NCBI GenBank assembly: GCA_017506865.1 | Contig: JAFCMP010000445.1 | Span: 744,001 to 808,000, forward strand | Direction: 5' to 3' | From: Tribonema minus | Lineage: Eukaryota; Sar; Xanthophyceae; Tribonematales; Tribonemataceae | DNA: 64,000 nucleotides | In this document: positions 3,567 to 63,540 of the stretch, piece after piece | Position numbering within the stretch: the stretch's first letter is position 1 | Layout of the letters: each line of letters opens with the position of its first letter | Notes under the pieces: model-generated | What the model was told of the DNA's origin: nothing | Seen by the model: the letters and a program-made list of their open reading frames with translations, nothing else | The model's database searches: none | Made by a program: the position numbers and the translations under genes

Positions 3567-6500
3567 TCAGGCCTCAAAGTACTCTGCGGCGGCGTCGAGC
3601 TTGGAGTGCGGGTACATGAACTTGAAGACGTCCGCGCAGCCCTCCTCCACCGCGCGCACCTCCTGCTTGGTCAGCGCCTTGCGCCACTTGTTCATCTGCG
3701 CGGCAAAGTCGCGCGGCCGCGTGTCGTACTGGCCTTCCTCTGCTCACGTGAGCGCGGGAGCGAGCAAGCGAGCAGGGAAGGCGACACATGCGTGTGAGGC
3801 GAGCGTCTGGTCTCGCGATGATGCAATACTATTTCACCACGACGCTGGTCATTTCGGCGTGTGCGAACGCGGCGCCCGGCCGCCAGCTGTAGTATAGGAT
3901 GATTGTTCTGCAACGCGTGAGCCTTGAGAGCATCAGGCCGTGAAAGTGTATTTGACACGAGCTCACTGTGTGACAGTAAATGCGACCAGCCGTGTTTCCA
4001 TCTGCAGCGAGAGAGAGTGATGATGTCTGCTGAGCACTGCTGTTTGATTGCAGCACCCTCTGCTTACTTCAGAACAGTTGGTGTCATACTTGACAAGGTA
4101 TCGCGTGCTCTTGCGAGCACTCACGGAGTCGGTGTTCTTGTTCACGGCCTCGCGGTCCGAGGCAAATAGCAGCAGCAGCGCTACATGTCAACACTTTGAA
4201 GTATACACTCTCGAGTAATAGTATGTATTCACTCGCGGTAGTTGTCACATACTGCATCTACATGGGCCCTAAAGTACTAGATTGACTCACGGAAGTCATC
4301 GTTCTTGTTCATGGCCTCGCGGTCTGCGGCACATAGCAATGCTACAGATACCTAAATCATAAACTCTCAAGCAGTAGTACGAAGTGTTTGTATTCACTCA
4401 CGAAATGTGTCACATAGAAGTACTGTACAAACTCACGGAAGTCGTCGTACTTATTCATGGCCTCGCGGTCCGCGGCGCACTGCGCACGCTCCTGAGCGCT
4501 GCTGTTGACGCAGCCATCTTGTTGACAGCGTCTACGTCATGAAACTCATAGAAGTATCATACACCTCAAGGTATTTGACAACACTATTTGTGTGCTCTTG
4601 CGAGAACATGATGCGAGAACTCACGAAAGTCGTTGATCTTGTTCATGGCCTCGCGGTCCGCGGCGCACCGCACGCGCTCCTGAGCGCTGCCGTTGGACGC
4701 AGCCAATTCATCCACAGCCTCTACGCATGTCAAAACATGTTATATCACACTCCACAAGGTACTTGTATGCCCTTGCGAGACCTCCATGTCAGAACAGTTA
4801 AAATTATGTACTCTTGTGAGAACTTACGGAAGTCGTCGTTCTTGTTCATGGCCTCGCGGTCCGCGGCGCACTGCGCGCGCTCCTGAGCGCTGCCGCTCGC
4901 GCAGCCGTCGTACACGCGCGCCTCGCGCAGCACCGCGTCCGGCACGGGCGCGCCGATGCGCGCGTAGACCATGGTCGCGCGCTCCACCGCATCGCCTGCA
5001 GAGAAGAAGGGGTAACATGTGTGCAGACTTCGAACCTGAATCAAATGCAACACGCGGGGAGTGTAGTTCAAGTTGACGCTCTTCGATGCGCGGCTCATGC
5101 GTAGACCGTGGTCACGCGCTCCTCCGCGTCGCCTGCGGAACAGGGTGGTGTGTGGGGGTGTGTGCAGACAAACTTCAGGTGGTTGCCACACATGCAGGGT
5201 TGCAGGTGAAACTGATGCATAGGTGGAGCGGTGAAGCGCGCGCAGACCGTGGTCGCGCGCTCCTCCGCGTCGCCTGCAGAAAAACAGGGGATGTACAGAC
5301 CGCAAATTAGAAATTGATGCCACACGAGGCAGTGTGGTGAAAAATTGATGCATTTGTGGAGCGGTGGTGCGCGCGTTGACCATGGTCGCGCGCTCCGCCA
5401 CGTCGCCTGCAGCGCTTGCGGGCGGGAGAGGGGTGCTTTCGCGCGCAGCCACTGCATTTCAACCAATTTTTAACAAGTACACGCGGGTGCACACTTTCAA
5501 GTACACATACCCGCCAGGTCCTTGCAGCGCAGCGGCAGGTACTCGCTGCGCCCCCCGCGCCTTACGCCATGCCGACATATATGTAATGCATACACTTCAA
5601 GTACTCACTCAAAAGTATACAGTAGGTATGACAAGTACGCTGCCACAGTACACACCCGCCAGGTCCTCGTAGCGCAGCAGCCGATACTCGCTGCACGCCC
5701 CGCGCCCGCACACGCATCCGTTATCATGCTGTCGCACATACGCTACTTTGTGCTTCGACGATACTTATGCACGAAAGGTGCACTTCCAAGTACTCAAAGC
5801 ATACAGTAGACCAATAATGCCAAGGTATATGTACCCGCCAGGTCCTCGTAGCGCAGCAGCAGGTACTCGCTGCAGTAAGTACCTTCAAAAGGCATACATA
5901 CATGGAAACGAATAAACAAATTGTAGAGCTCTAGGTGACCAGGTGTGGTTAGCCATCAAATCAAATGCCTTCTACCAATACATACCCGCTAGGTCCTCGT
6001 AGCGCAGCAGCAGGTACTCGCTGCGCCCCGCGCCCGCGGATGCGTCGATCATCATGTCGTCGCACATGGTCTTGGCCCACGGCAGCGTCGCCTCATACGA
6101 GTGCGTCATCGGGTGCAGCCAGCCGACGCTGCGGGCGGGCGGGGCGCAGCACGGCAGCAGCGCGCTCTGTGCGTCAGCGCTCAGCATCTGTTCACATGTG
6201 AAGGCGCTGCTAGGAACAGTGGCAGAGTCGCCTCGTACGAGTGCGTCATGGGGTGCAGCCAGCCGACGCTGCGGGGGGGGACAGGGGGGCGGGCAGGCGC
6301 AGCGCGCACAGAATTGCTCAGCAACTGCTTATAAACAGGCACCGCTCCAAGAGCAGCTTGGGGGTCAAATGCCACATGAAAGTCGCTGGCGCGCGGCGGG
6401 GAGGTGCCATGGGGGGGGGGGGGGGGGGACAGCTACTGAACTCTGCGCGGATGACTCACCCAGGTTCCATGTGGGCATGTCAGGCTAATAAGTGAATGCT

Positions 6501-9500
6501 GTTGATTGTGACCTGAAGCGGTGCGTCAGCGCTCAGCACCTGTACATGTTAGGGCGCTGCTCCACATCAGGGTGCTGCCGCCGCCGCCGCAGCAGCAGCA
6601 GCAAGAGGGTCACTGGCCGCGTGGAAGTGGTTCGCTTACGGCAGCAGTGTGTTGCGGGTGGGCGCCGTTGGATATTCTTAAAAGCAGGCCTGCACCGCGT
6701 TGCTCCGCCATGCGTGTTCTGATTCTGTGCAGTACCGTCGCGCGGCGATGCGGCGCCAGTCAGCGCATGCGTGTCTGGCACCGCCTGCCGCGTCAGCAGC
6801 GCTGCCCACATTTCGATGCAGCAGCCCGTAATTTCGGCACACTAATTCTGACCCTAGCCCAATGCGTTGTCGCTGCCTGACAGGCGTTCTCGCGCGGGTC
6901 ATCAGGGCGCTGCCGCCTTGCGCCGCCGCCTGCAGGCGCACTAAAGTCTCACCTACTTCGATTGGTTTTCATTCAATATGCAGCATCAACCAATAAGGTT
7001 GCCCGCTGCAGTGTCAGCCTCCGCAGCAGCAGCAGCGCACACAGAAAACATTCAGATACCCGAGCAGTAGCAATGCGTACACATGCGGTGCGGGGCCAGC
7101 AAAGGCGTCAAGGCAGCAGCGCTCATTGCTGATGTGCGCCGCGACGCCAGCGCCGCGCGCGGGTCACTCACGCAAGAGGCGGATCACTTGTTGAGCCGTG
7201 CACACACCCGCATCTTATTAACACATAAATGAAGACACAGTCGCTGAGCAGCGCTCACCTCCACCGCGACGCCAGCACCGCGCGCGGGTCGCGCACAAGG
7301 TGAATCACGAGATCCAGCTTGACGCCGAGCGCGTCCGATACCTCAAACAGCTCGCCCAGGCGCCCCGTCATGCGTATCTGCAGCGCCGTGGCGGGGTCAA
7401 CGTTAAAGGTGTTCTCGTTGTGTGCACGGGAATAGAGTATGTTGCAAAGTAGTTAACTCGCAAAGTAGTGAACGCGCTGTGTTCCCGTTGTGTGCATGGG
7501 ACTATGGTTTGTTGCGAAGCAGTGAATGCGTTGCCGCACGAAGGGGGCAAGAGCATTCACTTGTGCGGCAAACAGAGGGCGTCGTTGTGGCATTGTTCAA
7601 TTGGTTTTGTGGTTTGGATGCGACGAAGATAAAAACGCTGTTGTATGAGTAGAATGTAGGTGCTCGCACGGGAAACAATGGCGCAGTTGCGACATGCCAC
7701 AACGACTTGCAGTTGTCATATGCATGCGTCTATCAAGTAATGCAAGGAAGCAGCGGATTCAAGCGCTGAATGGCCAGCGAAGGTGTTCGGTCCGGTAAAC
7801 TGGCAATAGCCGACCAGAAACAGGAAGTCGATTTCGGTTCGCTAGGGCCACCAGTGTTGAACTGCAGTTCGTAGACTACGGTGCGGCGTTACCGCACCAA
7901 ACTCACACCGGATAGTAACAGATGCTTCTGTTTATAGGAGCCACTAAAAGTGGGGAATCGCCTTCCTCCCACCGACCGGTCCCTGCTCCCCAAGCAACTT
8001 TGTGTACGTGCTCTTAACCTTGACTCATAATTTATTTTTTGCTCTTTGTCCGGAAGCATGAAGGAACCATAGGCACTTGCAGGCCCGCACAAAGAGGTTC
8101 AATGGCATAAGGGAAAAAGTGAGTTCTCTCAAGTGAGTTCGCTTAAAGGAGCATCACACCTCCTCGCATTCGCTGCCGCATGCAGCGCGCCTCAGCTGCC
8201 TACATTGCATTCTGATCTGCATGCTACAAGTTCGTTCATTGCAACTTAACGCAAGCGCAATGGATTGCATGCTCAACTCAATTCAGCGACCTCAAGCCCA
8301 ACGGATTTGAATCTCATTGTAGGGGCCCATGTTGGCACCATCACCCGCCACTGCCCCATGGCAAGGTGCACACTGGGCCCGCTCTCTGCGCTCACAACAT
8401 CCTGCTGCTGGTACTGCGTCAATGCTACACTACTGCTACAAGGCTGTGGTTTGCGCTTCACATGCTATGAGCTCTGTACAGTAAACCAGCTTGAAGTGCC
8501 GAAGCAGGTCATCAACTGGAGCTACAAAGAGAGCTTTTGCAGTCATTCTTGCGTGTTCTGAAGCGAATACTCCAGCAGGACAGCTGCCGCACCACCAGCA
8601 CTTCAACCATTGTCAGCTTGAGAGATATGAGCTGCGCCCCAGGTTGTAGTGTGCTTCTGCAACTGGGGCTGAACTCAAAGTTCAAGTTGAACTGTTCTTG
8701 AGAAGTAGCTGCCTCCGCACCCTTCCAGGCACTTCAACAAAGCGTGTGTGTGCTTCAACTTTGAAGACAAAATGTCACCAAGACATACACTCGCCTCTTC
8801 GCGGCCACCCCCATTTTCCCCCCGCACTCCTTCAGGTGCGCCGCGAGCTCCAGCGCTCGGCACTTCAACAAGTGCGTGTACTTCAAGTGTAAAGAATTTC
8901 CCCCCGCACTCCTTCAGGTGCGTCGCGAGCTCCAGCGCTCGGCACTTCAATAAGTGTGTGTACTTCAAGTTTGAAGAAGCAGATACATGCTCACCCCTTT
9001 CGCCGTGAAGACACATCTCACCAATCTTGTATACATATATGCTCACCTCTTTCGCGGCCACCCCCACCTTCCCCCCGCACTCCTTCAGGTGCGTCGCGAG
9101 CTCGAGCGCGAGCGGCCGGCTCTGGTCGTCCTTGCTCGCCTTGCGCGGCAGCTTGGTCCAGTCCGCGCCCGCATCGAACAGCCCCGACGCCTTGGCGAAC
9201 GCCGCCGCGCCCGTAGTGAACGAGCTCCGCAGGCGCGTCCCTATCCACGGCAGCTTCTCGTGGGGCTCCGGCGCAACCGCCTCCGCCTCGCGCAGCAGCA
9301 GCTCCAGGGGGCGCTGCGTGTGCTTGCAGTCGACGACCTGCGCGCGCGGGGGTAGGTTATATGGAGGCACGCGGGGTAGGTATGCTGGCACGTGGGGTAT
9401 GTATGGAGGTATGTGGGGTATGTGTACTGTTGCGGCGCCACGGCTTCCGCCTCGCGCAGCAGCAGCTCCAGCGGGCGCTGCGTGTGCTTGCAGTCGACGA

Positions 9501-12500
9501 CCTGCGCGCGCGGGGGTAGGTTATATGGAGGCACGTAGGGTATGAATGGAGGCACACAGGGTAGGTATGGGGCACGAGGAGTACGTATGGAGGCACGTGG
9601 GGTATGTACCAACGGCCTCCACCTCGCGCAGCAGCAGCTGCAGCGGGCGCTGCGTGTGCTTGCAGTCGACGACCTGCGCGCGGGGGGGTAGGTATGGAGG
9701 CACACGGGGTAGGTATGGAGGCACGCGGGGCACGCATGGAGGCACGCGGGGGACGCATGTAAGCAGCGCGGCCGCGGTTGGAGTCCGTGACTTCACCGCC
9801 CGGCGTTGGCGCCGGCGCTGCAGCGTGTGCATGCGCGCGCGTCGCTCAGCAGTAGGGTACGGGTGGACGCAGCTCCAGCAGTGCCGCCGCGTTTCGCCGC
9901 GGATCACGGGAGCGGGCAGTGCGCGCAGCAGCAAACGGGCAGCCCAAACTGTCCCCTACGCATATGCATGCAAACACCAGCCTACAAAGCTCAAGTGCGT
10001 GGAAGTGTGCATGCCCTGTGTACGGTGAGCACACATCTACTTCAAGGTTGAAGCATGCAGAAAAACACGCTAGAGTCGAGAACGCTCTCACCTCCAGCAG
10101 CCCCGCCGCATTTGAAGCACACATACGATTGAACACCGGGTCTACTTCAGCGTAGCGGTGCATAAACACACGTCTGACCTGAAAGTTGAAGTATGCGGAA
10201 GTTCTGCACGTCACAACAGCGCGCGCGCCCTCACCTCCAGCAGCGCCGCCGCGTTCGCCGCGGAGCACATGTGAACTTAAATCTACTTCAAAGTTGAAGT
10301 ATACAGAAGTTGACATGCCATGACCGCGCGCGCGCCCTCACCTCCAGCAGCGCCTGCCGCATGTAAAGCCGCAAATGTGAATACACTGGTCACACCGGTC
10401 TACCTCAAAGTTGAAGTATGTGGAAGTTCTGCATGCCATGACCGAGCGCGCCCTCACCTCCAGCAGCGCCGCCGCGTTTGCCGCGGAGCACATGAACGGG
10501 TAGTGCGCGGAGCAGCGCACGGGCAGATTCGGGTGGTCGCCATACGTCTCCACCTCGTGCCTCTTGCCGTCCTCTAGCGGCGGCCACGTGAACCGCAGCG
10601 GCCTGCGCGTGTGTACAACAGAAGGGTGTGGGTATCACACAGAGCGCACGTTCACTGTGTGGCACTGCAGCACCGTCCTTTACCAGCGGGCGGCCTTGTG
10701 AAGCGCAGCGGCCTGCGCGTGTGTACATACGGTATGCGGCATCAGAAGGTAGGTATGGGTATGAGTATGCATACGCCATACGTCTCCACCTCATGCTTCT
10801 TGCCGTCCCCCAGCGGCGGCCACGTAAACCGCAGCGGCCTGCTTGTACATGGGAACGAATTCAACAGATCGTAGGGCTCCAGGTGACAAGGTGTGGTTAG
10901 CCACAAGTGCCTCCACCGGTACGGGGCATGAGAAGGGTATGGGTATTGCACAAGTCATACATACAGAATGTGGCAGCGCTTCTTGCCGTCCTCCAGCGGC
11001 GGCCACGTAAACCGCAGCGGCCTGCGCCTATGTACATACGGTATGGGGCATACGAAGGGTAGGTATGGGTATTGCACATGTTATACATACAGTATGTGGC
11101 AGCGCTTCTTGCCATCCTCCAGCGGCGTAAGCGCAGCGCCCTGCGCGCATGTACTACATTCGGTACGGGGCATCAGAAGGTTGGATGTGTACACGGATGT
11201 GGCATAGCAGGCGTCCTTTTTGCCGGTCTCCTGCGGCGCCGCGTGAACCGCAGCGGCCTGCGCGTACATGCGGTACGCGGCATCAGGAGGCAGGTTGGGC
11301 ATCACACAATGCATACGGTGTTGTGGCATTCGTAGGCGTACTTCAAGTATGGGACTGTGCACGGCAGGCACTCCTGCTCCTGCAGCAGAGGCTGCCATGC
11401 CATTGTGCGACACCGTGCGACGAGTGATCAATGAGAGCATCATCCAGTGCGCAGCGGCAGATGAAAGACTCGAGCGCAGGAGCTCCGTCAGCACTGCAGA
11501 GCACTGCCGCGGCGCAGGCACATGTACACACCGCCACCGCCACTCCATTGTAACAAGAATCTTGCTCCACTGCCTCGACGAGCGCACTGCGGAGCACTGC
11601 TGCCGCACATTATCACACACAAACACATACCGCCACTCCACTCACTCGCAAGAGTACGCCCACTCCGGCGCCTCTAATAGCGTCCCCACCAGCGTGAGAG
11701 ACGCTGAGCGAACTGCGGAGCACTGCCGCAGTGCGTGCATACATACATACGCTGCCGCTCACTCATAGCAGTACGCCCACTCCAGCTTTTGAATAGTGTC
11801 CCCACCAGCGTGAGAGCCTCTGAGCGAACTGCGGAGCACTGTTGCTGTGCGTGCATACATACATACGCTGCTACTCACTCGTAGAAGTACGCCCACTCCA
11901 ACGCCCCCAAACAGTGTCATCGTGAGACTCTGACATCAGTGCGGAGCATGCATGCATACATGCATACTCACCACTCACTCGTGAAATTACTGCGGAGCAC
12001 TGCCGCAGCATGCATACATACATACTCACTCGTAAAAGCATGCCCACGCCTCAAACAGCGTCGTCGTGAGACTCTGACATCAGTGCGGAGCTCTGCCGCT
12101 GTGAATGCACACCTACATGTATACATACACAAGCCTGCCACTCACTCATAGAAGTACGCCCACTCCGGCGCCTTGAACAGCGTCCCCACCAGCGTGCTGC
12201 CGCTGCGCCCCTCGCCCGAGATGATGACGTGCTTAAGCGCTGCCGAGCCGCCGCCCGCAGCAGTGCTCGGCGCCGCGCCCGTCGCATTGCTCAATGGCCC
12301 CGCGGCATGAGGCGCTGCGCGTGTGCATTTACACAAAGCACACACGCAAAAGTCTAACAGAGGTGAGTGGCGTGAGGGTGCAATTTATGTTTGTGAGTGA
12401 ATCGCTGAAGCGTGCTTGGTGGTGCGTCCGTCGTGGTCCCTGATGGCCCACGGGCGCGAGGCGCTGCGCACATACTTCGGAATGTATGCGGCGATGCACG

Positions 12501-15628: not shown

Positions 15629-18600
15629 TCAGCGCTGCGTCGCGGCGTGGTACAGGCGCGCGTCGAGATAGATGGAGTTGAAGACGTCGACGCACGCGTC
15701 CTCCACCGCGCGCACCTCCTCCTCCGCGAGGCTCTTCTTCCACTTGTCCTTGGCCTCTGCAAAGTCGCGCGGCCGCGTGTTGTAGCCCACGTCGACTGCG
15801 CGCGGCAACGGGCGGTGTGGAGTACAAGGTAAGCAGTGGAGGATCGAGTGAGTGAATGATCGGTCCGCTCACGAGGTCTGACGCTGGTGCATGAACGCGC
15901 AGGCATCTCGCAACTGACCGTCACAACTGGACAGATGAGTCTATTTTCAAACTTGTCCTTGGCCTCGGCAAAGTCGCGCGGCCGCGTGTTGTAGCCGACG
16001 TCGAGTGCGCGCGTAGCGGCGGCAACGAGCGGCGGCGTGGAGCACGACATGAGATGTCCGCAATGTGACATAGCTTGCGCGAGTCTGATGCTGCTGTGTG
16101 AACGCAAAGGCATCTCGCAACGCTCATGACTGGATGGTTGAGCTTGTCCTTGCTCCGCAAAGTCAAGCGGCAGCGTGTAGTAGCCCACATCGACTGCGCG
16201 CGGCGGCGGCGGCGTGGAGCACGGGGCGCGGGCACTTTGGGCTCCAGCAGTGGGAGATTGAGTGAGGGAATGACCGGTGCGCCCGCGCCAGTCTGACGCT
16301 GGTGCATGAACGTGCAGGCATCTCGCAACTGCCCGGTCACGACATATGAGTTTATCTTCCAACTTGTCCTTGACCTCCGCAGAGTGGCGCAGGGTCAGAC
16401 GCTCCCTGAGCTGCACGCACTCCTCCGTCTGCGCAGCACCCTCTGCTGTGCGTCAAACCAGCAGCAACGGCGCGCCATGCGTGCATGGCGCTGTGAACAT
16501 TCAGCAGCAGCAGCACCAGCAGCAGCGCCGACCACCACGTACTCGCAGCGCCTGCGTGCATGGCGCTCTGCGAACTTGGCACTCTGCGAACTCAGCAGCC
16601 GCCGCCGTTGCCGCCGCCGCCGCCGCAGCAGCAGCAGCGCTCCACAATGCTCTACAACACACAATCACAGCCGTCGTCCTCCTTCGCCATGCGCTCCACG
16701 CACAGCTGCGACAGCAGCAGCGCCCTCTGCGCGCCTGCGTGCACGGCGCTCTGAGCATTTGGCAGCAGCAGCGGCAGCGCTCAACAACATGCGAGTACTC
16801 ACAGCCGTCGTCCTCCTTGGCCATGCGCTCCCTGTCCTGCACGCACAGCTGGCGCTCCCACTCCGACCCGCTGCCGCAGCCGTCGTACACGCGCGCCGCG
16901 CGCAGCACCGCCTCCGGCACCGGCGACCCGATGCGCTGGTACACGACGCGCGCGCGCGCCTCCGCGCCACCTGTTTGAAGGTGATGCAGAAGTGTTGAAG
17001 TTAGGATGAGTAAGGGTGAACGAGAATGGACACACGCGCGCCGCGCGCAGCACCGCCTCTGGCACCGGCGAGCCGATGCGCTGGTACACGCCGCGCGCAC
17101 GCGCCACCGCGCCGCCTGTTTTGAAGTTGAGATAGAGGTGGTGATTAGTGAGCAACAAGTCCTAACATGAGGATGAGTGGGAATGTGCCTCCGGCTGGTA
17201 CACGACGCGCGCGCGCGCCTCTGCGCCACATGCTTTGAAGTTGAAGAGAAGCTTTGAAGTTAGGACTTGCACGGTCGCGTGCAACATGGCCTCTGGTCTT
17301 GGCGAACCGTTGCGCTGGTACACGATGCGCGCACGCGCCTCCGCGCCGCCTGGTTGAAGTTGAATTACAATGTTGAGTGGGAAAGTACATGCGCGCCACG
17401 TGCAGCGCCGCCTGTGTTTGAAGTTGAATAGAAGCGTTGAAGTTACGACATGCACGTCTCGCGCAGCACCGCCTCCAGGAGCGGCGACCCGATGCGCTGG
17501 TACACGATGCGTGCGCGCGCCTCCGCGCCGCCTGTTTTTCAAGTTGAAGAGGAGCGTTGAAGTCAGGACATGCACGTCGCGCGCAGCACCGCCTCTGGCA
17601 TCGGCGGAGACCCTGTTGCATACGCACGCACGCACGCACCTCTATATATATACTGCTGCTGCATACCGTCTCCGCCAGGTCCTTCCAGTGTACCAAAGCA
17701 CCCAGCAGTATCCATACATACTTACAAGACCATCCCACTGTACCTACATACCCTTTGGTGTGCGCAATACGTACCTGCCAGGTCCTCGCAGCGAATCCTC
17801 GCGCAAGGCACATACATGTGCACCCGTGTGCTTTGAGCTGCAGGGGGGGCTCGCAGCGCGCCTACAAGCGCACCCTCCGTTGTGTATACAATACATACCT
17901 GCCAGGTCCTCGTAGCGCAGCGGCATGTACTCGAGGTGCGACGCGAGCGCTGGCGCGTCGTCCATCACGTCCGAGCATACCTACATACCCACCGATGTGT
18001 ATGCAATACATACCTGCCAGGTCCTCGTAGCGCAGCGGCATGTACTCCGGACGCTATGCGACTGCCAGTGCGTCATCCATCACGTCCGAGCATACCTACA
18101 TACCATCCACCAGCAGCGCGTCATCTATCATATCCGATACCTATATACCATCCAAATGTGTACACAATACACACCTGCCAGGTTCTCGTTGCCCAGCATG
18201 TACTCCGGGCGCGACGCGAACCGCCAGCGCGTCGTCCATCATGTCCGCGCATACCTACATACCATCCACCAGTGCGCAATGCAAAAAAAATACATACCTG
18301 CCAGGTCCTCGTAGCGCAGCAGCATGTACTCCGGGCGCGATGCCACTGCCAGCGCGTCGTCCATCATGCCCGTGCACAGGCTCTGCGCCCACTTGAACGT
18401 GTCCTCGTACGTGTGCAACACCGGGTGCAGCCAGCCGACGCTGCGCGCGCGCACGAGCATATGCACAGAGTCAAATGTATGCCAAGGTACTATATGTGAT
18501 GCCAAAAGCCAGAGGGGGTAATTATGTTAATTGCGTACGTGTGCATGACCGGGTGCAGCCAGCCGACGCTGCGCGGGGCGCGCGGACGAGCAAACGCACA

Positions 18601-21600
18601 GAGTCAAATGCATGCCCAGTACTATACTTCAAGTCCTTGAAGTATGTGATGCTATGGGTGTGGTCTGCTGATTAGTGTACGTGTGCAACACCGGGTGCAG
18701 CCAGCCGACGCTGCGCGGGGCACGAGCGTACGCGCAAAGTCAAATGTTTGCCAAGCAGTATTTGGCAAATACTGTATGCGATGACAAAGCCAAAGGGGGT
18801 AACTGTGTTGATTTGCGTGCGTGCGCATGACCGGGCGCAGCCAGCCGGCGCTGCGCGGGCGCGCGCGCGCGCACACACGAACATGCATACGCACATAGTC
18901 AAATGTATGCCAAGTACAATATGAGATGCCAAGGGTGTATGTAGATGGGTATGTTGATTTGCGCACAAAGTCAAATGCGTGCCAAGTACAATATGTGATG
19001 CCAAGGGCGTATGCAGATAGGTATGCTGATTTGCGCACGTGTGCACGACAGGTTGCAGCCAGTCAAATCTGCATGGCATGCACCCGCATCTAATGTGAGC
19101 ACAAGACATGAAGACAGAATTGTTTGAGCCGTGCCCACCTGAAGCGCGATGCCTGCACCGCGCGCGGGTCATGCACGAGGCGGATCATGACAGCAGTATT
19201 GAGCCGTGCAGACATCTGCTGTTTTATTGAAATTTGCATAAGAAATGAAGACAGACTTGTTGAGCCGTGCCGCCAGTACCGCACGCGGGCCGCGCGTGAG
19301 GTGGATCACTGTTGAGCCGTTGATGCACCTGTGTCTACTTAGCACAAAGAAGTGAAGACGGACTTGTTGGGCCGTGCGCACCTGTAGCGCGACGCCAGCA
19401 CCGCGCGCGGGTCGCGCACGAGGTGTATCACGAGGTCCATCTTTACGCGCAGCGCGTCTGCGACGTCAAACAGCTCGCCCAGGCGCCCCGTCATGCGTAT
19501 GACCTTGGCCGCCACCCCCTTCTTCCCCTTGCAGTCCTTGAGCTGCTCCTCCACCTGGGGGAGGGAGCGCAGCGGCGGCGCGGTGCGCGCGGTGGTGAGC
19601 TGACGCGCCAAAGTATATCATGGATTGAGATGCAAACACGCGACCTTGGGCGCTCCTGCGCAGGCGTGAGCCTGTCCGCTTTGATGAGCGCTGCTGCCCC
19701 ATCGCTCACTTGGTCAAAGTGTACCCTCTCCTCCTATGTATACTTCAAATACATACCTTCAACTACTCGCCTCCTACATACCTGTGCCGGCGTGAGCCTG
19801 TCCGCCTCCGCTTCGAGCTTCGGCAGCGCCGCGGCGTCCGCGCCGAACGCGCCCGCGGCCTTGATGAGCGCCGCCGACCCCATTAATCACTTGGCAAAGT
19901 GTACCCTTTTCCCCCGTCTACACTTGAACTTCATGCCCCAAAGTACCTACATACATGCCTGCGCCGGCATGAGCCTGTCCGCCTTGACGAATGCTGCTGA
20001 CCTCATTGCTCACTTGCGCCGCACAGTTCCCCTCTGCGTACTTCAACTACATACTTCAACTCCTCGCCTCCTACACACCTGCGCCGGCGTGAGCCTGTCC
20101 GCCTCCGCAGCGAGCTTTGGCAGCGCCGCGGCGTCCGCGCCGTACACCCCCGCCGCCCTGATGAGCGCTGCTGACCCGACCGTCGCCGCCTCGTGGTTGC
20201 GCGTGCCGATCCACGGGACGGGCTGCGCGGGCTGCTTAGCCGTCTCCGCCGCCTCGCGCAGCAGCAGCTCCAGCGGGCGGTTGGTGCGCTCGCACGAGAT
20301 GACCTGGGCGCACGTTGAGATAAATGTATGTGTGTGTCAGCGTTGTGTTGCCAGCGAAGCAGGCAGCATGTTGTCAAGTCGCCGCTGCCTCGCGCAGCAG
20401 CAGCTCCAGCGGGCGGTTGGTGTGCTCGCACGAGATGATTGGCGCGCGGAGAGAGGGGTAGGCATGCATGCATGTATCAGGGGGATACGCTGCCAGCGAG
20501 ATGCGCATACTGAAAACACACGTGCGCGCGTGATCGGCGTGGCATCCCGTGCGGTGTTGCTGAAGGAGTCCGGCACACAGATGAGCGACAGGATGTGCAC
20601 ACAATCCAGGTCTCCGCAGCCTGCACAGCGGCACCTCAGAGTACACGTGTGAATGCACGCTTGTGAACTTCAATGCTGAAGTGCAAGGAAGTTGACGTGC
20701 CACGAGTGCGCGCGCGCGCCCTCACCTCCAGCAGCGCCACAGCGTTCGCGGCGGTGCACTGGCGCGGGTAGTGCACGTAGCAGCGCAGTGGCGGCTCAAA
20801 GCACGCATGTGACTGCACACTGGTCAACTTCAATGTTGAAGTGCATGGAAGGTGACGTGCCGTGACTGCACGCACGTTCTCACCTCCAGCAGCGCCGCGG
20901 CGTTCGCGGCGGTGCACTGGCGCGGGTAGTGCACGGAGCAGCGCAGTGGCGGCGGCCACCCCACCGCCTTCACCTCCTCCTCTTTGGCCTTCTCAAACGC
21001 CGGCCATGAAAAGCGCAACGGCCTGCCGGGGAGGGGAGAAAGGGGGTACGTGTGTGTGTGGGGGGGGGGTCGTTCACATCGGGCATATTCTGCTTGTGTT
21101 GTGAGCGAAGTTGAGCACTTGAAGTTGGGCCTTGGTGTGGGTAGCGCCGCTGAAGCGCGCAATCTCTTGCAACAGCTTCCTGCGCTTTCTGTGACCTCCA
21201 CCGCATGGCGTGCCTGCGACGCGCCTCTGACCCACAGAAATGACGCTGTGAAGTCTGCGTGGAGTCGAGGGTTAGGGTTAGGGTTAAGTCACGGCCCTGC
21301 CCTGTCCAGGGATATCATTGCAGCACGCGGCGCTGTGTAGGTGCTGACCACTTGGAGTGCAGCACACGTGCGAAGAACTTCTCCTAACCCTAACCCCGAG
21401 TGCCACAGCATCGGGCTCGTTCAACGGAGTTCGTCCCGCACCCATGCGCACGTCCGCGCCGTTGCGTCAATCGATTGTTACACCATCAGACCAGTGGAAG
21501 AAGCAAAAACTCGAACGACGACATTCGAATGATGGGATCGCATGATCGCAAATGTGCTTGCTAGGACGGACTGCACTTTTTTGTGCTGGGTTCTGTGCTC

Positions 21601-27602: not shown

Positions 27603-27633
<31 letters not shown>

Positions 27634-34602: not shown

Positions 34603-34650
<48 letters not shown>

Positions 34651-43805: not shown

Positions 43806-43902
43806 CCAATGGGTGTCCTTCTACTTGAAATTGAAGTACTAACATCAGCCACAAAGGGAACAGTTGCAACAGGGATAAACCGGCATCTTTCGAGGCATAT
43901 CA

Positions 43903-46412: not shown

Positions 46413-46444
<32 letters not shown>

Positions 46445-48349: not shown

Positions 48350-48392
<43 letters not shown>

Positions 48393-52766: not shown

Positions 52767-55700
52767 TCAACTGCTGTACATGGCGCCCCCCCGCATGTGC
52801 TGCATGTATTGCTGGTGGTGCGCCGCCGCCGCTGCCGCTGCCGCCTGCTCGCGTGCGTGCGGTGCGTGGGGGGGGGGGGGGCAGGGGGCGGGGTGGCGGC
52901 GTCGGTGGGTTTACAAGCGCAGTTGGTGCAGCGCCGCGGCGTTTACATCGACGGGGTCAGCGTAGTGGTGGCGCGTCGCATATGGCACCTGCCATCAGGG
53001 AGTGGGGAGGAGGGGCGGGGGGGCGGGAGGCTGTGAGCGGTGGCAAGGCCCCGTGGATTGCAACCTATGCTTCTAGAGGCTATGAAGTACTCATACTTGG
53101 AGGATACGATGCGCTGGTATGTGGTATACTGCTGATAGCACAATCTCAGAGACAGGGGGCGGCGCGCTCCGGAACAGCAGCGTGGGTAGGTAGGTCAGAA
53201 CGCATGCAGAAGTATCCGTCCATCGAAGGCAACGCCAGTCGACCTCGATCGAGCATATCTGGCCTGTGACGGACAACGTCACTGGCGTGCAACACGAGAT
53301 GGACTGTACCGCCTCGGCACTGTACGGCGCAGAGTAGGGCTTCGGTGCAGACGCACACGCGTGCGCCGCGCACCGACGACACTACCCACAGCATGCCACG
53401 GTCGCCGCCGCTGGCGCTGTCAGCACAGACGCTTAAGGCCGCTCTTAAAATGCATTTTGTAAACAATGCCAGTTATCGGTGAAGACACAGCAGTCAACAA
53501 CGCAGCGCACGCACCTGCTGCGGCATGTGCGGCATGCCGCCGCCGCCGCCGGCGGCGTGGCGCATGTGCTGCTGCGCCGCCATCGCCGCCGCCGAGACGG
53601 GCATCTGCTGCGGTGACGATATCGCGTGCCCCCCTAACCCCCCGCCGCCGCCCACGGGTGGCGGCAGGTGTATGACCATGGGGTCCGGGTGGTCACCGCC
53701 AGAGGTGCCGCCGAACTGGTTCGCCTCGCGCTTGTGTTGAACCTGGGCGCAGCGTCACGCGTTGAAGTACAATGGAGTACAATCGCAGAGCGTGAGCATG
53801 TGGCATCACGCGCCGCTGCTGGCGCGCGGCAGCGGCGGGCCGGGACGCTGTGAACGTGCAGGGCTCGTTACAAAGGGGGACTCAGAATCTGACTCAGGGA
53901 GTCTGAGTGCTGCCGCGGGCAGGAGCGCGGACCCGCACCTCGCAGCGTGAAAAAGCCATCCTGGCTGCTTGTGATTCGAGAGGCAGGCAGCAAAGCATCC
54001 ACAGTGCCGCGTGTCTGCGGCACACCTGGCCGTGCGCGACGCATGCTCCCCGCAGCAGGATGTTGCAGTAGTATGTTGGTATGTGGCGCGTCCGTGATCA
54101 TCACAGGGGCATGTTGGCATGAGGCACAGGTGCCATCCATGCGCGTGCCACGAGCAACGGCGCACGCGCACAAAAGCAATGCAAAACGGCGCCTCCGCGG
54201 CCGCAGGGGCGCGCGGCAGCAGCGTGATTGCGGCAGCGCGGCACCAGCGCACTCGCCTCGCGGGCCGCGTACGAATGAACATGAGGAGCATAAACACAAC
54301 GCGTCAGTTGTCAGTTGCTGAGCGCTGCCGTTTCAAGCCCCCTGCGGACCCCTCCCCTCCTCACCTTGAGCCGTTTTGTGCCTATCTGGAAGCCGTTCAT
54401 GTGCACGATCGCCGCCGCGGCCGCCTCCGGGTTGTCGTAGCTGACAAAGCCAAAGCCCTTGCTCTCGTTCGTCACCCTGTCTACGTAGACCTGTGCCAAC
54501 GAGGGGGGGGGGGAAGGGGGGGGGGGGGGCGCCAGGCGTGAGCATCAAGCATCATCGCGTTCGCCTGCGTCACTCTTTTTGCCACCTGTGTTCTCCTGCA
54601 CGTGGCAATTGGCATGCCTTTGCCTCTGCTGAGTGCAGCGGTGTGCCTCTGCTCAGCACAGCCGGTCGAGCAACTCAGAGAGGGCAGCGTCGCTCAGGTA
54701 TGAAAAATCAACGATGGGGGGTGAGGGTGGATGTGAGGCTGGCGCTGGGCAGGGGTAGGCATGTATCGCGCCTGCGCGCATCTCCGCGCTGCTCGCGTTT
54801 CCTGATGACGCATGCTGTCACCAGGTCTGCGTTATTGTAACATGTGGCAATGCTACGCTAGGGCTAGGGCTAAGGCCAGGGCTAGGGCTGGGGTAGGCAT
54901 GTATGGCGCACGTATGAACGCACTTCGGTGCTGATGACGTTGCCGAACGACGCAAACGCCGTCGCGAGGTCCGCGTCCGTTAATTAGGGCTAGGGCTAAG
55001 GTTGAGACAGGGGTGGTCATCTCTAGGGCTACGGCTGGCGGTGGGGGCAGGGCAGGTCTGAAACTGGCACACGTATCAAGCGTGCGCGCGCACGCACCTT
55101 GGCGCTGATGACATCGCTGAACGACGCGAACACTTTCACCATGTTTGTGTGTATTGGACAACGAGGTGTCAGCTACGACCACAGCTGAGGCTAGGGAAAA
55201 CGCAAAGGCCAGGATGTGGGGGACGCGCGCACGCACCTTGGCGCTGATGACGTTGCCGAACGACGCGAACGCCGTCGCGAGGTCCGCGTCCGTCAGGTCG
55301 TGCGGCAGGTGGTAGATGAACAGGTTGCTCTTGGCGGGCCCCTCCTGCGGCCGTGCAGGTGTCAGCTCCTCCACCAGCGCCGACGGCCCACCTCCCTGCG
55401 GCACGCCGCCGCCGCCGCCGCTGCCATACTGCGCGGCGGCAGCGGCGGCGGCGGCGGCGGCGGCGCTCGGGCCTGCTGGCGGCACCGGCGGGTACCCCAT
55501 TTGCTGCTGCGGGGACGGCGGCGGCAGAGGGGAGGGGCGGGGAGAGCGGCGGTTGAGGATATCGCAGCGGTGCACGCGGGGGAGCGTTGTGCAGCAGCGA
55601 AGAGAGCGCTGCGGAGCGCTGCTGCATACGTCAGCGCTCAGCTGCAGCGGGAGGCGCGATATTGCCGAGGCGCGGCACGAGGCACTACTGGTGCCGCAGC

Positions 55701-58700: not shown

Positions 58701-61700
58701 CGGCCATACTTCAGGAGGCTGTCGCGCGCGAGCAAGCCTGTCCTGCATACCACTCGAAAGCGGCGAACAACACTACCAAGCAACATGTATATATGCATAC
58801 CTACCCCTGCTGCCGATGGGGCACGACAGCACGCGCTCAGCGCGGTGCGGCGCGGTGCGGCACTCACCCTCGGCACGACGTTGCGCTTGTTGTTGTCCGC
58901 AAACTTGACGACGAGCGGCCGCGGCGCGCCCTCGAGCGTGTAGCGCTCGTGCAGCGCGTCGATCGCCTGCACGGCGCACTCCCTGCGCAAGAGGGAGTCA
59001 CAGTCAACGTCAGAGTCAGACTTGAAAGTCGTTGTGGCACTGGAGGAGGGGGTGCTTCAGGTCGGATTCAATGAGTCGTTGTGCCGCGCTGACGCGTGTG
59101 TGGCGCTCGTGCAGCGCGTCGATGGCCTGCACGGCGCACTCCTTGCGCGCAGGCCAGGCGAAAAGGGGATCAGAGTCAGAGTCAAAGTCGCCGCGGCGCG
59201 CGGGACGGGGGCGTCGGATGAATCAGAGTTGACAAGTGAGATTGGTGCGGCGCGCTCTCGGGCGTGCGCGGCGCACTCCCTGCGCGCGTCAGAGTCACAC
59301 TCAAAGTCAGCAGTCCTGACGGCGTGCTGAAAGGGAGAGTCAGCGACACAATTGAAGTCGTTGTGGCGCGATGTCGTACGCGTGTACTGTAGCGCATGTG
59401 CTGCGCGTCGATGGCCTGCAAGGTGCGCTCCCTGCCTATGGGCATCAGGGCGAGCCGCATACACACCTCAGAGTCAGACTCAGAGTCATCGCCGTGAGTG
59501 CACGTCCTGCTCTGCGCAGCGCGCAGCGCACAATGTAGCGAGCGTGCAGCCCCGGCAGGACGGCCGTGGAAGCTTGCCAAAATGCAATCGCCCATTTGCC
59601 AACTGCGCCATGAGGGTAGCGGCGACAACTGCGCTGATACAGATGAAAAAATGCAGGAGGCCACGTGATGCAATGCGAGTAGCAGCCACAAGTGCCTTAA
59701 TTACACAGGCGGGCGGGCCGCGCGCGCTCACCTCTCCATGAACTTGACGAATGCGCACCCCTTGTTGGACCCGTCGCTGTTCCGGATGATGTGCACTTCC
59801 CGCAATTCGCCGAAAGAGCTGAGAACAAGGGGGGGGGGGGGGGGGGGGGGGGGGGGGTGCAGCAGTGCTCAGCAAGAAGACGCGCTCGCAGTGATCATAG
59901 CAGCAGAGCTTTGGCGGGAGGGGGCAGCGATGCTCAGGAAAGCTGAACCAAACTTTACTTTCAGAATCTTGCTTCAACGCAACAACGAGGCAGCGCGTTC
60001 AGCGGGAGAAGCAGCAGCGCTCAGCAAGCGTGATGCGGCGGCGCTCGGCGGCCGGGGGAGGGGGGGGGGGGGATGCAATGCGACATAACTTTGGGGGAGC
60101 AACGAGGGGCAGCGCGCAGCAGTCCAAGGGAGCGCACCACAGCATCGCTCTGAGAAGCGATGCGGCAGCGCGCAGGGTTGGGCGACGAGGACAGTGCTCA
60201 GCAAGCCCGGTGGTCGACGCGCCGCATGCCGTTTGGCGTCGTCTCAGCGACGGCAGGCACTGCATGACTGCTGCAGAGTTGCCGACGGGCAAACATGGCG
60301 GTGGCGGCAGCGCGAAGCGCGGCGGTTGCAACTGTCCCAATCAGCGTACGCGGGGCGACGCGTGAGCGGAAACGCCGCGCCTCGCGACACGCACACAGAC
60401 GAGGCATGCATGCGGTATGCGTGCTGTGAAGAATGCGCATGCACGCATTCATGTGTGTGTGTGTGTGTGTGTGTCTGTGTGTGTGTGTGCGTGTGTATAT
60501 TGCCCAGTGGCTGAGCGCCGCTGACGCGCACAACGCACCTGAACACCTTGCGCAGCTCCTGCTCGTTGGCAGCCTTGGGGACCATGCCCACAAACAGCTT
60601 GTTGTCGCGCTCGTTGTGGCCTTCCGCTGGCCGCACCTGAGCACAAGGGGGGGGGGGGGGGGGGGGCAGGGGCACAAGCACGTCACCATCTCAGCAATCG
60701 CATACTTCAACTTCTTGCACCTTGAACTGCATAAAAGTGTGAAGCGCTTGTTGTGGGCGTCTGTCCGCTGCACCCGAGCAACGGCAGGGCGCTCAGCGCA
60801 GGCACGTCAGCATCTCAGCGATGATAACTTCAACTGTGGTGCACCGATGTCTGCGCACCAGCGACATCCCTGTCTGTCCTTCTATTTTGAGCCGCAAGCA
60901 GAACTGATGGAGGTATGTAAGCATGCAGGCACCGACGCGGCCAACACCAAGCGCCCAACGCGCTTTAACCTTGAGGGGGCAGTGACGCTCAGCGGAGCCT
61001 TTGCGCATGGCCTTCACTGCCAGACATGCAGGCACCGCGCGCCTGGGCGGGTGTACCGGCACAAGGCACGCCGGCATCCCTCAACTTGAAGTTCAACCTT
61101 GTGCACTCCAAAAATGCGCTCAGTGCTCAGCGGCAAGCAAGCGCGCACTGCGGCATCGCGCTCGTGCAACAGATGCTACGCCTACCCCCAACCTTGCACT
61201 GACCGTTCATGCCACATCAACTCGGTGCACATGGCACCTGCGCGCGCAGCACCGATGACGCCGGCAACAGACCCTAACCCTAACCCTGGCGACAGCGCCG
61301 GCCTCGTGTGAGCACCATGCCAGCACGACATAACCCGTTTACGAAAACACGGCACACCGATATGGCAGCGCGCTGTTGGTGCACGGTCACCAATCAGGTA
61401 TGAGCACCCGCAGCGCTAATGCGTGTGCGTCTGTGATCTGCAGCGTCTGGTGACGCGCGAGAGGTGGCGCGCGTGACAGGCGTAACCGCCCTACGGGTGC
61501 TGAGCAATGGCTGCAATCAGTCCTAGGGCGCGCGTAGCTCCGGCGAAAGTATGCATGAGCGCAGCACGGCACGCTCATGCGGCCGCGTTTGCCCGAAAAT
61601 GCGCAGTCTCAACAAGGTGCTTAGATCAAGCACTCGTATGGGCGCGCTCAAACTGTTGAAGTTTATGGGGCAAGGCTTCACTACATAGAGAACAGCAATC

Positions 61701-63540
61701 AGGAAAAAAATGTTGGTGGTGAGCGGGCGCGTGGGCGCACGCGCAATGCTCAAACGCCCTATCCCCCACGCTCTCTTGGCCCTCACAGACCAGAAAGGTG
61801 ACCAATGGTTGGCTACACTTTGCCGCTGGAAAAGCAAATGCTTTAGCATTGGAAAAGCATTCCGAGGTGCTAAAGAAGCATTTGGGGCCACGGTCCAACC
61901 GCGACTTGCAATGACGCAACTCTACTGCCGTTGACTTGCTCTGTTGACCTTGCAAATTCAGTCTGAGAGAATCCATGTCCTAGAGTTGAAGTTGCCCCTT
62001 GCACTATCACATCGTGCAGTTTCACCTGGGACACTGGCGGAAATGTCTGCTCACACAGAACCAGCACACTCCAGCGGGATGTGCCGCGCTAGGGACTGAC
62101 ACAGCGGGAGCCAGCAGCGAGGCGCCCCCATTGAGCAGGCACACATAGCCGAGAGCACGTGCACGTCACTTGAACCTGCAGCTGTGGTCACAAATGCAAG
62201 GACGAACACCCCTACAAGCATCACCTTTCGGCGGACTGCCTGGTAAAATGGTGCTGCTCCTGCGGACCAGCCACAGGCGCGACTGCAATCGCAGTGCGCC
62301 TGCAGGCTGCTGCGCACAAACAAGGCTGTCGTGCGCGAGCGGCGACCAGACTGTCAACGCAGTGACATCACCTCTCTGTGGCTAGCCTGTGTTCTGACGA
62401 CTGCAACTGTGCGGACTGTGCAGTAATGTGTGCAGGCTCCTCAATGGAGAGTGGAGGGCCCGCATGAACCGCGGAAGCATATCTGGCCTCCAGCTTTGAC
62501 TTCACCGGTAAGTGTACACGAATGGGTGCTTAATTACAGCTGCTGTGCACAGCCTGCGTTGCAGCCATCTGCGACAGCTATTTACCATAGACATGCGCTG
62601 GCGGCTCTGCCACTGCTACGGAAGAAGCTGCCTGAGCGGCTGGAGCACTCTGCAAGCTCCTCCCCCAAATTAAACAAGCTGAGACAGCTCACCTGCAGCG
62701 CATTCTGTGACCCCACAAGCTTTCTGTTTCCGTGCAGCGCCGCCGTCGCCGCCTCCGCCGCTGCCCGTGTGCAGTATGTGAGAAATGCACAGCCTGCGCA
62801 GCGAATGAGTCATTACACATTGTGTGTCATATAAATAGACTGGAGGGGGCGACTGAAGGCCCCTGGAGGCTCAACATGGTGAAATCAGCCAACAGCTGCG
62901 ATGACATGAAGTGTGGCAGCGAAGCACTCCAGTATTACAACTGCACACAGTTGAAGAGACAGCTGGTCAACATCTTCGAATGAAGCAAGCAAATGAGTAT
63001 GCAAGCTGCATGAGACCAAGCCCGTGACTGAGATGCTCCGGCCCACGAGGTTGGTCCCAGTTGAAAGCTGCGGCTGAAGCCACTTGATTCTGACGGTCGA
63101 AAGACTATGAGCACGACGCCAAGAAAGGCTTGATGCGTGCGAAAGGCGAGCAGACGCATAGGGAGACGTGGAGCCGAGAAACGGTGTCCAACAGCTGACG
63201 GGATCGCAACGTGGCATTGTTGGTGCCATGTGCGCGTGAGTTGAAGCAGGGGAACACCTCGTGTTCGGAGTACCAAGGCTTCTGCGGCGTGCACGCTGCT
63301 CTGCCAACACGAGCACGATCGAGCGAACTCACCTCTATGCATGCCCGTCTGCTTATCCCGGATGATCGCCAGATCGAAGACCTCGCCGAACTCGGAGAAC
63401 AGAGGGAGCAAGGCATCCGCTTCCATGGTCTTGGGCACCTGCCCTATGAACAGCTTTATGGCATCTGGATCCTTCCGAAGCAATCCGATCGTTGCATCCC
63501 TGCTACTGGCGGCGGCGATCTCGCCTGAGTTGCCCTGCAT
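52767..63540 (-). CDS. CELF/Bruno-family RNA-binding protein, three RRMs, 11 exons
   Basis: Exons are 63540-63333, 62793-62693, 60636-60539, 59818-59732, 58982-58868, 57326-57242, 56173-56049, 55506-55237, 54490-54365, 53742-53515 and 52844-52767, totalling 1521 nt (506 aa). All phases agree (1,0,2,2,0,1,0,0,0,0). RRM1 has [20 protein letters not shown] and [14 protein letters not shown]2 begins [18 protein letters not shown], then [10 protein letters not shown] and [14 protein letters not shown] Gly/Tyr-rich and Ala/Gln linker follows. RRM3 has [28 protein letters not shown] and [15 protein letters not shown]. The C-terminus is Met/Gln-rich, ending MYSS. Domain order, the divergent linker and the length are those of CELF/Bruno proteins, which bind GU-rich RNA and act in splicing, translation and decay. 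RRM1 and RRM2 residues typical of RNA contact are present. The start is the first ATG before RRM1. Confidence 0.92.
54905..55145 (-). repeat. Echo copies of the CELF-like exon 8 3' end
   Basis: The RRM3 edge [20 protein letters not shown] recurs at about 54915-54982 (extending to [10 protein letters not shown] coding, donor lost) and 55090-55135 (donor intact); the real end is at 55237. Here the farther copy is the longer one, an exception to the usual gradient. The spacers contain GGGCTAGGGCTA and GGCTAGGG-type degenerate telomere-like words. Confidence 0.85.
56700..56745. repeat. Interstitial telomere-like repeat
   Basis: AACCCTAACCCTGACCCTAA and following CCCTAA units lie in a CELF-like intron, right next to a run of nine A. 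Confidence 0.8.
56856..56973 (-). repeat. Dispersed intronic element, copy C
   Basis: Reverse orientation relative to A and B, nearly full length: its plus-strand order is AATAATCAAAAGATCGTAGC, then GGTGACAAG, then GCCGCAAGTGCCTTCCGCCA, then CAATTGACCACGAGTC. It lies in a CELF-like intron. Confidence 0.8.
59080..59460 (-). repeat. Echo array: CELF-like exon 5 5' end
   Basis: Acceptor-side copies (GCGCAG|GGAGTGCGCCGTGCAG plus AIDALHERY coding) lie at about 59095-59155, 59262-59288 and 59385-59445; the real start is at 58982. The first keeps a GCGCAAGG near-acceptor and the third reads GGCAGGGAG. The spacers share GGAGTCAGAGTCAGACTC-like words. Confidence 0.85.
59829..59857. repeat. Poly-G (coding-strand poly-C) tract before a CELF-like acceptor
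   Basis: 29 uninterrupted G on the plus strand. On the transcribed sense this is C29, ending 11 bases before exon 4 at 59818 (C29-TTGTTCTCAG). It sits where a polypyrimidine tract is expected. Confidence 0.85.
60452..60498. repeat. TG/AC dinucleotide microsatellite
   Basis: About 23 TG units with two interruptions, just downstream (in transcript sense) of CELF-like exon 3. As AC repeats in the pre-mRNA they lie about 40-90 bases from the donor. Confidence 0.9.
61265..61290. repeat. Interstitial telomere-like repeat
   Basis: AGACCCTAACCCTAACCCTG in CELF-like intron 2. Confidence 0.7.

What the first reader, a model, noticed from the sequence alone, without database searches (positions are those of the whole stretch)
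3567..63540. Introns built from spaced, decaying copies of the neighbouring exon edge ('exon-edge echoes')
Seen directly: in six of the eight genes most large introns contain several copies of 30-100 bases that match the adjacent exon edge together with its splice site, separated by about 100-210 bases of intron sequence. I count more than 60 copies in at least 25 arrays. The copied segment always crosses the exon/intron boundary. Neither whole-exon duplication, transposon insertion nor ordinary minisatellites explain this. Inference: a recurrent process duplicates segments anchored at exon boundaries, and the outer copies then decay. It may be a source of intron growth and of alternative splice sites. 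I do not know this as a described system.
Basis: partly seen in the sequence, partly recalled or inferred. Interest (0 to 1): 0.95.

Follow-up and report, generated by a model that had tools for sequence, protein, structure and literature searches.

The report
Exon-edge tandem arrays inside algal introns
In this yellow-green alga many introns have grown by repeated tandem duplication of the exon edge next to them, and the exon-derived pieces stay close to the exon while the DNA between them decays, which points to a way introns can lengthen and can mislead automatic gene annotation.

Summary
Real. In 35 curated introns I count 77 exon-edge copies at 30 of 70 edges. Exon-edge 60-mers have a local copy in 46% of cases, exon interiors in 6%, DNA outside curated genes in 4%. 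Copies form tandem units (exon edge + intron, median period 151) straddling the splice site; the basic event, boundary-crossing tandem duplication, is known singly (potato RdRp). Geometry predicts a third of arrays at an edge; 28 of 40 were. Unusual: exon-derived parts stay close to the exon while homologous spacers decay (probe ratio 0.26; simulation 0.80-0.99), most clearly in a third paralog; and arrays recur at the same edges in three sulfotransferase paralogs, always like their own exon. Echoes look neutral; two transcript-derived proteins lack them. Best reading: the exon edge is a master copy that keeps re-homogenising its array. Against generality: in other loci only 10 of 115 edges have echoes, and local repeats are as common between genes.

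The parts
15629..22416 (-). SULT2, sulfotransferase-like gene, 7 curated exons: 22416-22319, 21022-20884, 20303-20079, 19554-19382, 18440-18298, 16970-16803, 15795-15629
   Evidence: PF13469 and PF00685 above cut-off
3567..12239 (-). SULT1, tandem paralog of SULT2 (59% aa identity), 7 curated exons: 12239-12146, 10602-10458, 9337-9047, 7377-7259, 6128-5986, 4995-4828, 3740-3567 (first base of the last exon uncertain by a base or so)
   Evidence: transcript protein P0005 is 100% identical over exon e
21924..22085 (-). 2 donor-edge echoes of the exon ending at 22319
20721..20785 (-). 1 donor-edge echo of the exon ending at 20884
20382..20445 (-). 1 acceptor-edge echo of the exon starting at 20303
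19655..19984 (-). 3 donor-edge echoes of the exon ending at 20079
19129..19309 (-). 2 donor-edge echoes of the exon ending at 19382
   Evidence: unit junction shared with SULT1
18534..18860 (-). 3 acceptor-edge echoes of the exon starting at 18440
17766..18232 (-). 4 donor-edge echoes of the exon ending at 18298
17056..17537 (-). 4 acceptor-edge echoes of the exon starting at 16970
16665..16708 (-). 1 donor-edge echo of the exon ending at 16803
15951..16390 (-). 3 acceptor-edge echoes of the exon starting at 15795
11638..11905 (-). 3 donor-edge echoes of the exon ending at 12146
   Evidence: unit junction shared with SULT2
10673..11265 (-). 4 acceptor-edge echoes of the exon starting at 10602
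9870..10360 (-). 4 donor-edge echoes of the exon ending at 10458
9443..9682 (-). 2 acceptor-edge echoes of the exon starting at 9337
8790..8935 (-). 2 donor-edge echoes of the exon ending at 9047
8995..9046 (-). 52-nt unit at the donor edge of the exon ending at 9047, apparently absent from the allele behind transcript protein P0132
   Evidence: one unit removed gives 20 of 22 residues and the same stop as P0132
7139..7171 (-). 1 donor-edge echo of the exon ending at 7259
   Evidence: unit junction shared with SULT2
6221..6278 (-). 1 acceptor-edge echo of the exon starting at 6128
5505..5873 (-). 3 donor-edge echoes of the exon ending at 5986
5099..5412 (-). 3 acceptor-edge echoes of the exon starting at 4995
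4115..4684 (-). 4 donor-edge echoes of the exon ending at 4828
27354..27581 (-). 2 acceptor-edge echoes of the predicted exon starting at 27214
31938..32221 (-). 2 donor-edge echoes of the predicted exon ending at 32366
35105..35169 (+). 1 acceptor-edge echo of the predicted exon starting at 35281; 97% identical to it although the spacers are strongly diverged
35532..35790 (+). 2 donor-edge echoes of the predicted exon ending at 35422
35963..36177 (+). 2 acceptor-edge echoes of the predicted exon starting at 36284
36617..37422 (+). 5 acceptor-edge echoes of the predicted exon starting at 37603
46019..46050 (-). 1 donor-edge echo of the predicted exon ending at 46274
44305..45183 (-). 7 donor-edge echoes of the predicted exon ending at 45337, with a young 358-bp higher-order duplication
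59085..59435 (-). 2 acceptor-edge echoes of the exon starting at 58982 of an RRM (CELF-like) gene
   Evidence: RRM domains
54918..55131 (-). 2 donor-edge echoes of the exon ending at 55237 of the same RRM gene

Best explanation
Each array began as an ordinary tandem duplication of roughly 100-250 bases that happened to straddle a splice site (shown: units are head-to-tail and spacers homologous). Such duplications are tolerated because splicing at the original edge removes every extra copy (two transcript-derived proteins without echoes; tolerance itself inferred). Units are then gained and lost by exchange or slippage between copies (suggested by one unit present in the genome and absent from a transcript). 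The exon edge is held by selection, so it acts as a permanent master copy: conversion or unequal exchange keeps rewriting the exon-derived part of the copies, up to the splice site, from the exon, whereas the spacer has no master and drifts until it no longer pairs (inferred from the rate mismatch). Edge arrays therefore persist and accumulate, intron-only arrays fade, and introns grow. The copies have no splicing or coding function of their own (inferred from their neutral pattern).
For: Copies at 30 of 70 edges, with controls. Spacers homologous: 33 of 47 pairs above the best of 20 shuffles (by eye). Exons masked: 28 edge-linked arrays of 40, against 0.33 expected from geometry for a 151-base unit and collapsed introns (P=1.5e-6), 0.53 for a 250-base unit (P=0.023). 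Rate mismatch: intron-flank probes found 18 copies, exon probes 68 (ratio 0.26 at score 44; 33 and 75, 0.44, at score 36; 11 and 51, 0.22, at score 60), while a simulation of uniform decay gives 0.80-0.99 at score 44. Third paralog, donor edge d: exon against echo 1 differs at 1 of 59 bases, against echo 2 at 1 of 60 (counted by eye; identity 0.98), beside spacers at 0.64 and 0.52 identity (0.51 and 0.44 shuffled). In a young 358-bp unit the first spacer shows 5 differences in about 144 columns by my eye count, so it is not hypermutable there. Echo neutrality: differences by codon position 0.070/0.075/0.134; GT kept in 25 of 29, AG in 20 of 24; 17 of 70 frameshifted. 41 of 41 window sulfotransferase echoes and 10 of 10 in the third paralog score higher with their own exon. 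At edges a and d the unit junction is shared by both window paralogs (2 of 200 and 0 of 200 shuffles as good) although the echoes are own-like (20:3 and 6:0 diagnostic sites). One 52-nt unit absent from a transcript allele. No rank gradient, as a master-copy model expects.
Against: Conversion was not observed directly. Finding echoes through the exon is a selection bias that my simulation only partly removes; copies selected through the spacer (29) showed no better exon part than spacer (with register problems). Unit comparisons are mixed: substitutions in echo against spacer were 4 of 76 and 17 of 82, 5 of 50 and 16 of 127, 5 of 50 and 41 of 118, 10 of 74 and 7 of 31, but in one SULT1 pair the spacer was the better kept, 12 of 67 and 3 of 41. 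At the two shared-junction edges few diagnostic sites exist, and new units born from the exon by unequal exchange would also look own-like. At six of eight edges testable between the window paralogs the junction is not detectably shared, so many arrays may simply be young and independent. In the spacer comparison between paralogs one non-matching intron pair (SULT1 d/e with SULT2 f/g, score 55) scored higher than the matching pairs (46, 48, 38). In 18 other loci only 10 of 115 predicted edges have echoes, while 195 of 1553 predicted intergenic 60-mers have a local copy, so the duplication process is not specific to exon edges genome-wide; some of that intergenic DNA may be unpredicted genes.
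Confidence: 0.57

Rival explanations
1. Plain neutral tandem duplication with uniform decay, seen at exon edges only because one copy there is frozen by selection and because short introns force many duplications to cross an edge.
For: Geometry alone gives 19-53% edge crossing for units of 100-250 bases in collapsed introns; local repeats cover predicted intergenic and intronic DNA equally in 18 other loci; echo differences fit neutral decay; in one unit pair the spacer is kept better than the echo.
Against: Excess of edge arrays even with exons masked; far fewer spacer copies than exon copies detected than uniform decay predicts; SULT3 edge d.
Confidence: 0.21
2. A dedicated copying process picks up exon edges with their splice site (for example RNA-templated or template-switch repair at splice sites) and inserts them into the intron.
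For: Similarity falls off about 10-20 nt inside the intron and copies vanish about 100 nt inside the exon; arrays occur at the same edges of three paralogs, six of eight edges tested between two of them without a detectably shared junction.
Against: Spacers between copies are homologous and young arrays duplicate whole units including spacer.
Confidence: 0.13
3. Echoes are kept by selection as decoy, alternative or regulatory splice sites.
For: Most echoes keep GT or AG; echo-echo identity is higher than spacer identity; only one ungapped echo has an in-frame stop.
Against: GT/AG retention (25 of 29; 20 of 24) is what about 7% per-base divergence gives by chance; codon positions 1 and 2 alike; 17 of 70 frameshifted; two transcript-derived proteins lack echoes.
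Confidence: 0.06
4. Assembly artefact from long reads.
For: Tandem repeats are hard to assemble; I had no reads.
Against: Copies differ from the exon by about 9% on average in aligned exon columns and have different spacers, which mis-assembly does not create.
Confidence: 0.01

Closest known systems
Boundary-crossing tandem duplication in the potato RdRp gene (Ma, Lan and Niu 2016, PMC4974935; abstract and passages seen)
   Same: A tandem duplication spans the 3' part of an intron and the 5' part of the next exon, as in the acceptor-side units here.
   Different: One event that created one new intron; here arrays of up to seven copies, on donor and acceptor sides, at 30 of 70 edges, lengthening existing introns.
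Internal gene duplication / tandem genomic duplication model of intron gain (Rogers 1989; Gao and Lynch 2009; Hellsten 2011; seen only as cited in passages of PMC3443670 and PMC4974935)
   Same: Tandem duplication inside genes supplies splice sites and intron sequence.
   Different: The classical model duplicates exonic AGGT to make a new intron; here the original splice site stays in use (tested on one transcript-derived protein) and copies remain inside the old intron.
Concerted evolution of tandem repeats by gene conversion or unequal exchange (recalled)
   Same: Copies within one gene resemble their own exon more than the paralog's.
   Different: Homogenisation here seems to stop at the splice site, and the exon serves as a selected master copy.
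Introners (PMC9860276, search listing with start of abstract only)
   Same: Large contribution to intron sequence.
   Different: No common element: each array derives from its own local exon edge.

Membership tests
Tandem duplication crossing an exon-intron boundary | Copies head-to-tail with homologous spacers | tested here: met
   33 of 47 adjacent spacer pairs above the best of 20 shuffles, 14 not; similarity along the spacers by eye
Tandem duplication crossing an exon-intron boundary | Unit contains exon and intron sequence with the splice site inside | tested here: met
Intron gain by tandem duplication of AGGT | A new intron arises, bounded by the duplicated AGGT | tested here: not met
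   Transcript-derived P0005 joins SULT1 exons e, f and g at the original edges; only that gene part tested, and P0005 may be a chimera
Concerted evolution | Copies closer within a gene than between paralogs although the array predates the paralogs | tested here: inconclusive
   51 of 51 echoes own-like (41, 10); shared unit junction only at edges a and d of eight tested
Concerted evolution | Direct evidence of conversion tracts or unit turnover | tested here: inconclusive
   One 52-nt unit present/absent between genome and a transcript-derived protein; no tracts mapped
Introner or transposon insertion | The same element at many unrelated sites, with target-site duplication | tested here: not met
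   946 mismatched edge/intron pairs of other genes score at shuffled level; target-site duplications not looked for
Functional alternative or decoy splice sites | Splice sites or frame of copies conserved beyond neutral expectation, or used in mRNA | tested here: not met
   P0005 and P0132 carry no echo; depth of transcript evidence is small

The most novel reading that the evidence does not exclude
Exon edges can seed and indefinitely maintain satellite-like arrays in the neighbouring intron: because the exon is under selection it is a permanent template, so its copies are rejuvenated up to the splice site while everything between them decays. This 'exon as master copy' would be a general mode of intron growth in this lineage, and the unit borders would mark recombination at exon edges.
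Probability: 0.35. Interest if true: 0.8.

Novelty: new variant of a known kind. Interest (0 to 1): 0.6.

Why it matters
How introns lengthen other than by transposon insertion is poorly known. Here 38% of the bases of the 34 longer curated introns lie in exon-edge array spans, and three paralogs bear arrays at the same edges, so birth, turnover and decay can be followed at homologous sites. It also has a practical side: two automatic Tribonema sulfotransferase models contain seven and six near-repeats that the transcript-derived proteins lack, while three other Tribonema models checked contain none, so some predicted proteins of this species hold false internal repeats.

Tried and rejected
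Whole-exon duplication: rejected, copies reach a median of 66 (donor side) and 51.5 (acceptor side) bases into the exon. Echoes as hidden cassette exons with their own far splice site: looked at the sequence beyond each copy and saw no consistent AG or GT; not tested statistically. Reading frame of units: periods are not multiples of three (28, 22 and 27 by remainder). First spacer comparison between paralogs (second part) was spoiled because N matched N; redone with different mask letters. Self-blastp for internal repeats returned nothing for any protein, which I take for a technical failure; redone by Smith-Waterman. Spacer-anchored identity profile ('intron' rows) loses register and was given little weight. 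Recalled claim that Chlorella variabilis has similar exon repeats in its introns: the paper is not held; the three passages of the Coccomyxa paper with the words intron, exon or tandem do not mention it. Ten literature searches, four of which returned no paper, listed no description of the phenomenon; most subscription papers are not held. Dropped before counts: introns under 200 bases (one of 35), introns under 150 bases, exon edges under 40 bases and low-complexity probes, arrays with one echo in the rank test. With a slightly different probe the first ten loci gave 8 of 62 edges.
Full report
IDENTITY. The window lies on contig C445 (1,973,627 bases) of a 158-Mb assembly in 554 contigs. A protein search with the joined exons of one window gene returned Tribonema minus models, one from a contig of exactly 1,973,627 bases, and transcript-derived proteins whose species the listing does not name. 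The organism is therefore Tribonema minus, a xanthophyte (inferred). A simple hidden-Markov gene finder written here gave two tandem sulfotransferase genes (SULT1, SULT2), an RRM gene of CELF type, and four less certain genes. Sulfotransferase exons were fixed with P0001 (a transcript protein, 60% identical) and P0005 (95-100% identical over the matching exons).

OBSERVATION. Searching each intron with the adjacent 60 exon + 10 intron bases gave 77 copies at 30 of 70 edges in 21 of 35 introns. The 99th percentile of 700 shuffled donor probes and of 946 mismatched pairs was 32, against the threshold of 44. With plain 60-mers, 46% of 67 exon-edge probes have a local copy, 6% of 31 exon-interior probes, 23% of 257 probes more than 400 nt from both ends of introns (which includes long arrays), and 4% of 295 probes outside the curated genes. 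The profile across the boundary is sharp: 0-0.08 copies per probe beyond 100 nt into the exon, about one at the edge, 0.26-0.41 just inside the intron.

WHAT THE ARRAYS ARE. Neighbouring spacers are related in 33 of 47 pairs, and similarity along the spacers can be read directly in several arrays. A 358-bp unit in gene G6 and other arrays found by TRF show whole-unit tandem duplication. So these are head-to-tail tandem repeats whose unit contains a splice site, not isolated insertions. Periods have a median of 151 (81-289) and ignore the reading frame.

IS THE EDGE SPECIAL? If units of 151 bases fell at random in introns collapsed to their single-copy length, 33% would cross an edge; with exons masked, 28 of 40 arrays were edge-linked. 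Six of the 12 others overlap the span of an edge-linked array, six lie apart. The excess shrinks with assumed unit length and is weak at 250 bases (0.53 expected, P=0.023). In 18 other loci (180 kb, chosen by position), 10 of 115 predicted edges, 0 of 115 shuffled edges and 0 of 242 exon-interior probes had copies, but so did 195 of 1553 predicted intergenic 60-mers; repeat coverage was 0.119 intergenic, 0.126 intronic and 0.063 exonic. Of the 50 arrays there, by my reading of the list, 15 touch a predicted exon, 4 are intron-only and 31 lie in predicted intergenic DNA, some of which may be unpredicted genes. The window's sulfotransferase genes are thus extreme, and tandem duplication is common in this genome's noncoding DNA generally.

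TWO RATES. Between exon and copy the differences per codon position are 0.070, 0.075 and 0.134 over 70 echoes, which is what a neutral copy and an exon free mainly at third positions would give. GT is kept in 25 of 29 and AG in 20 of 24, as expected from about 7% divergence; 17 of 70 are frameshifted and one ungapped echo has an in-frame stop. Uniform neutral decay at that age predicts that 60-base intron-flank probes should find 0.80-0.99 as many copies as exon probes (simulation); the observed ratio is 18/68 = 0.26, or 33/75 = 0.44 at score 36 and 11/51 = 0.22 at score 60. In the third paralog (SULT3, contig C85) the exon edge d and its first two echoes differ at 1 of 59 and 1 of 60 bases, third codon positions included, beside spacers at 0.64 and 0.52 global identity (shuffled 0.51 and 0.44). 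Single unit comparisons mostly go the same way, but one SULT1 pair has the better-kept spacer (3 of 41 against 12 of 67). Detection through the exon biases echoes upward, though not by this much in the simulation. I read the mismatch as renewal of the exon-derived part from the exon (conversion or unequal exchange), with the exon as master copy. This step is inferred.

PARALOGS. SULT1 and SULT2 are 59% identical in protein, with 45 of 132 four-fold sites differing. All 41 window echoes tested and all 10 SULT3 echoes score higher with their own exon. Over 44 echoes, diagnostic sites were own 412, paralog 46, other 36. Non-echo sequence of introns a/b, b/c and d/e is shared by SULT1 and SULT2 (scores 46, 48, 38; shuffled maxima 27, 30, 26), though one non-matching pair scored 55. 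At edges a and d the sequence bordering the units is shared, so those founding duplications look older than the paralogs although the echoes are own-like; at the six other testable edges it is not detectably shared. SULT3 has echoes at 5 of 8 edges. Recurrence at the same edges is therefore partly inherited and perhaps partly independent.

TRANSCRIPTS AND TURNOVER. The transcript-derived proteins P0005 and P0132 carry no echo; the automatic models P0002 and P0003 carry seven and six near-repeats (0 in five shuffles each), while P0001, P0004, P0006 and P0012 carry none. P0132 runs into the intron after exon c; removing one 52-nt unit from the genome sequence yields its reading frame and stop (20 of 22 residues), whereas the intact genome does not. 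So that allele seems to have one unit fewer. P0005 joins a SULT2 5' part to a SULT1 3' part and may be an assembly chimera, which limits its weight.

VERDICT. A real and striking feature; the basic event is known (tandem duplication across a boundary, PMC4974935; tandem genomic duplication, PMC3443670), but its scale, its recurrence in paralogs and the difference between exon-derived parts and spacers are a new variant as far as the listings show.

Noticed in passing
L004 (contig C1:20001-30000): Gene-dense stretch with a ribonucleotide reductase small chain (PF00268) and an ATPase-like reading frame; by recall it resembles an endogenous giant-virus insertion. Described only.
   Followed up: no
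window 5898-5971, 10846-10903, 22189-22262 (inverted); 26954-27052 and 56858-56960 (inverted): Short dispersed repeats, in both orientations, unlike the local exon-edge arrays.
   Followed up: no
window 36690-36747, 54857-54897, 56708-56737: TTAGGG-, GCTAGG- or AACCCT-type hexamer tracts; similar CCCTAA runs occur in some spacers.
   Followed up: no
window 3567-22416: Transcript-derived P0005 combines a SULT2 5' part with a SULT1 3' part, and the automatic model P0002 also seems to run across both genes; chimera or read-through cannot be told apart.
   Followed up: partly
   Followed up: no
window 48288-48637: Long CAG-type triplet tract in a predicted gene.
   Followed up: no
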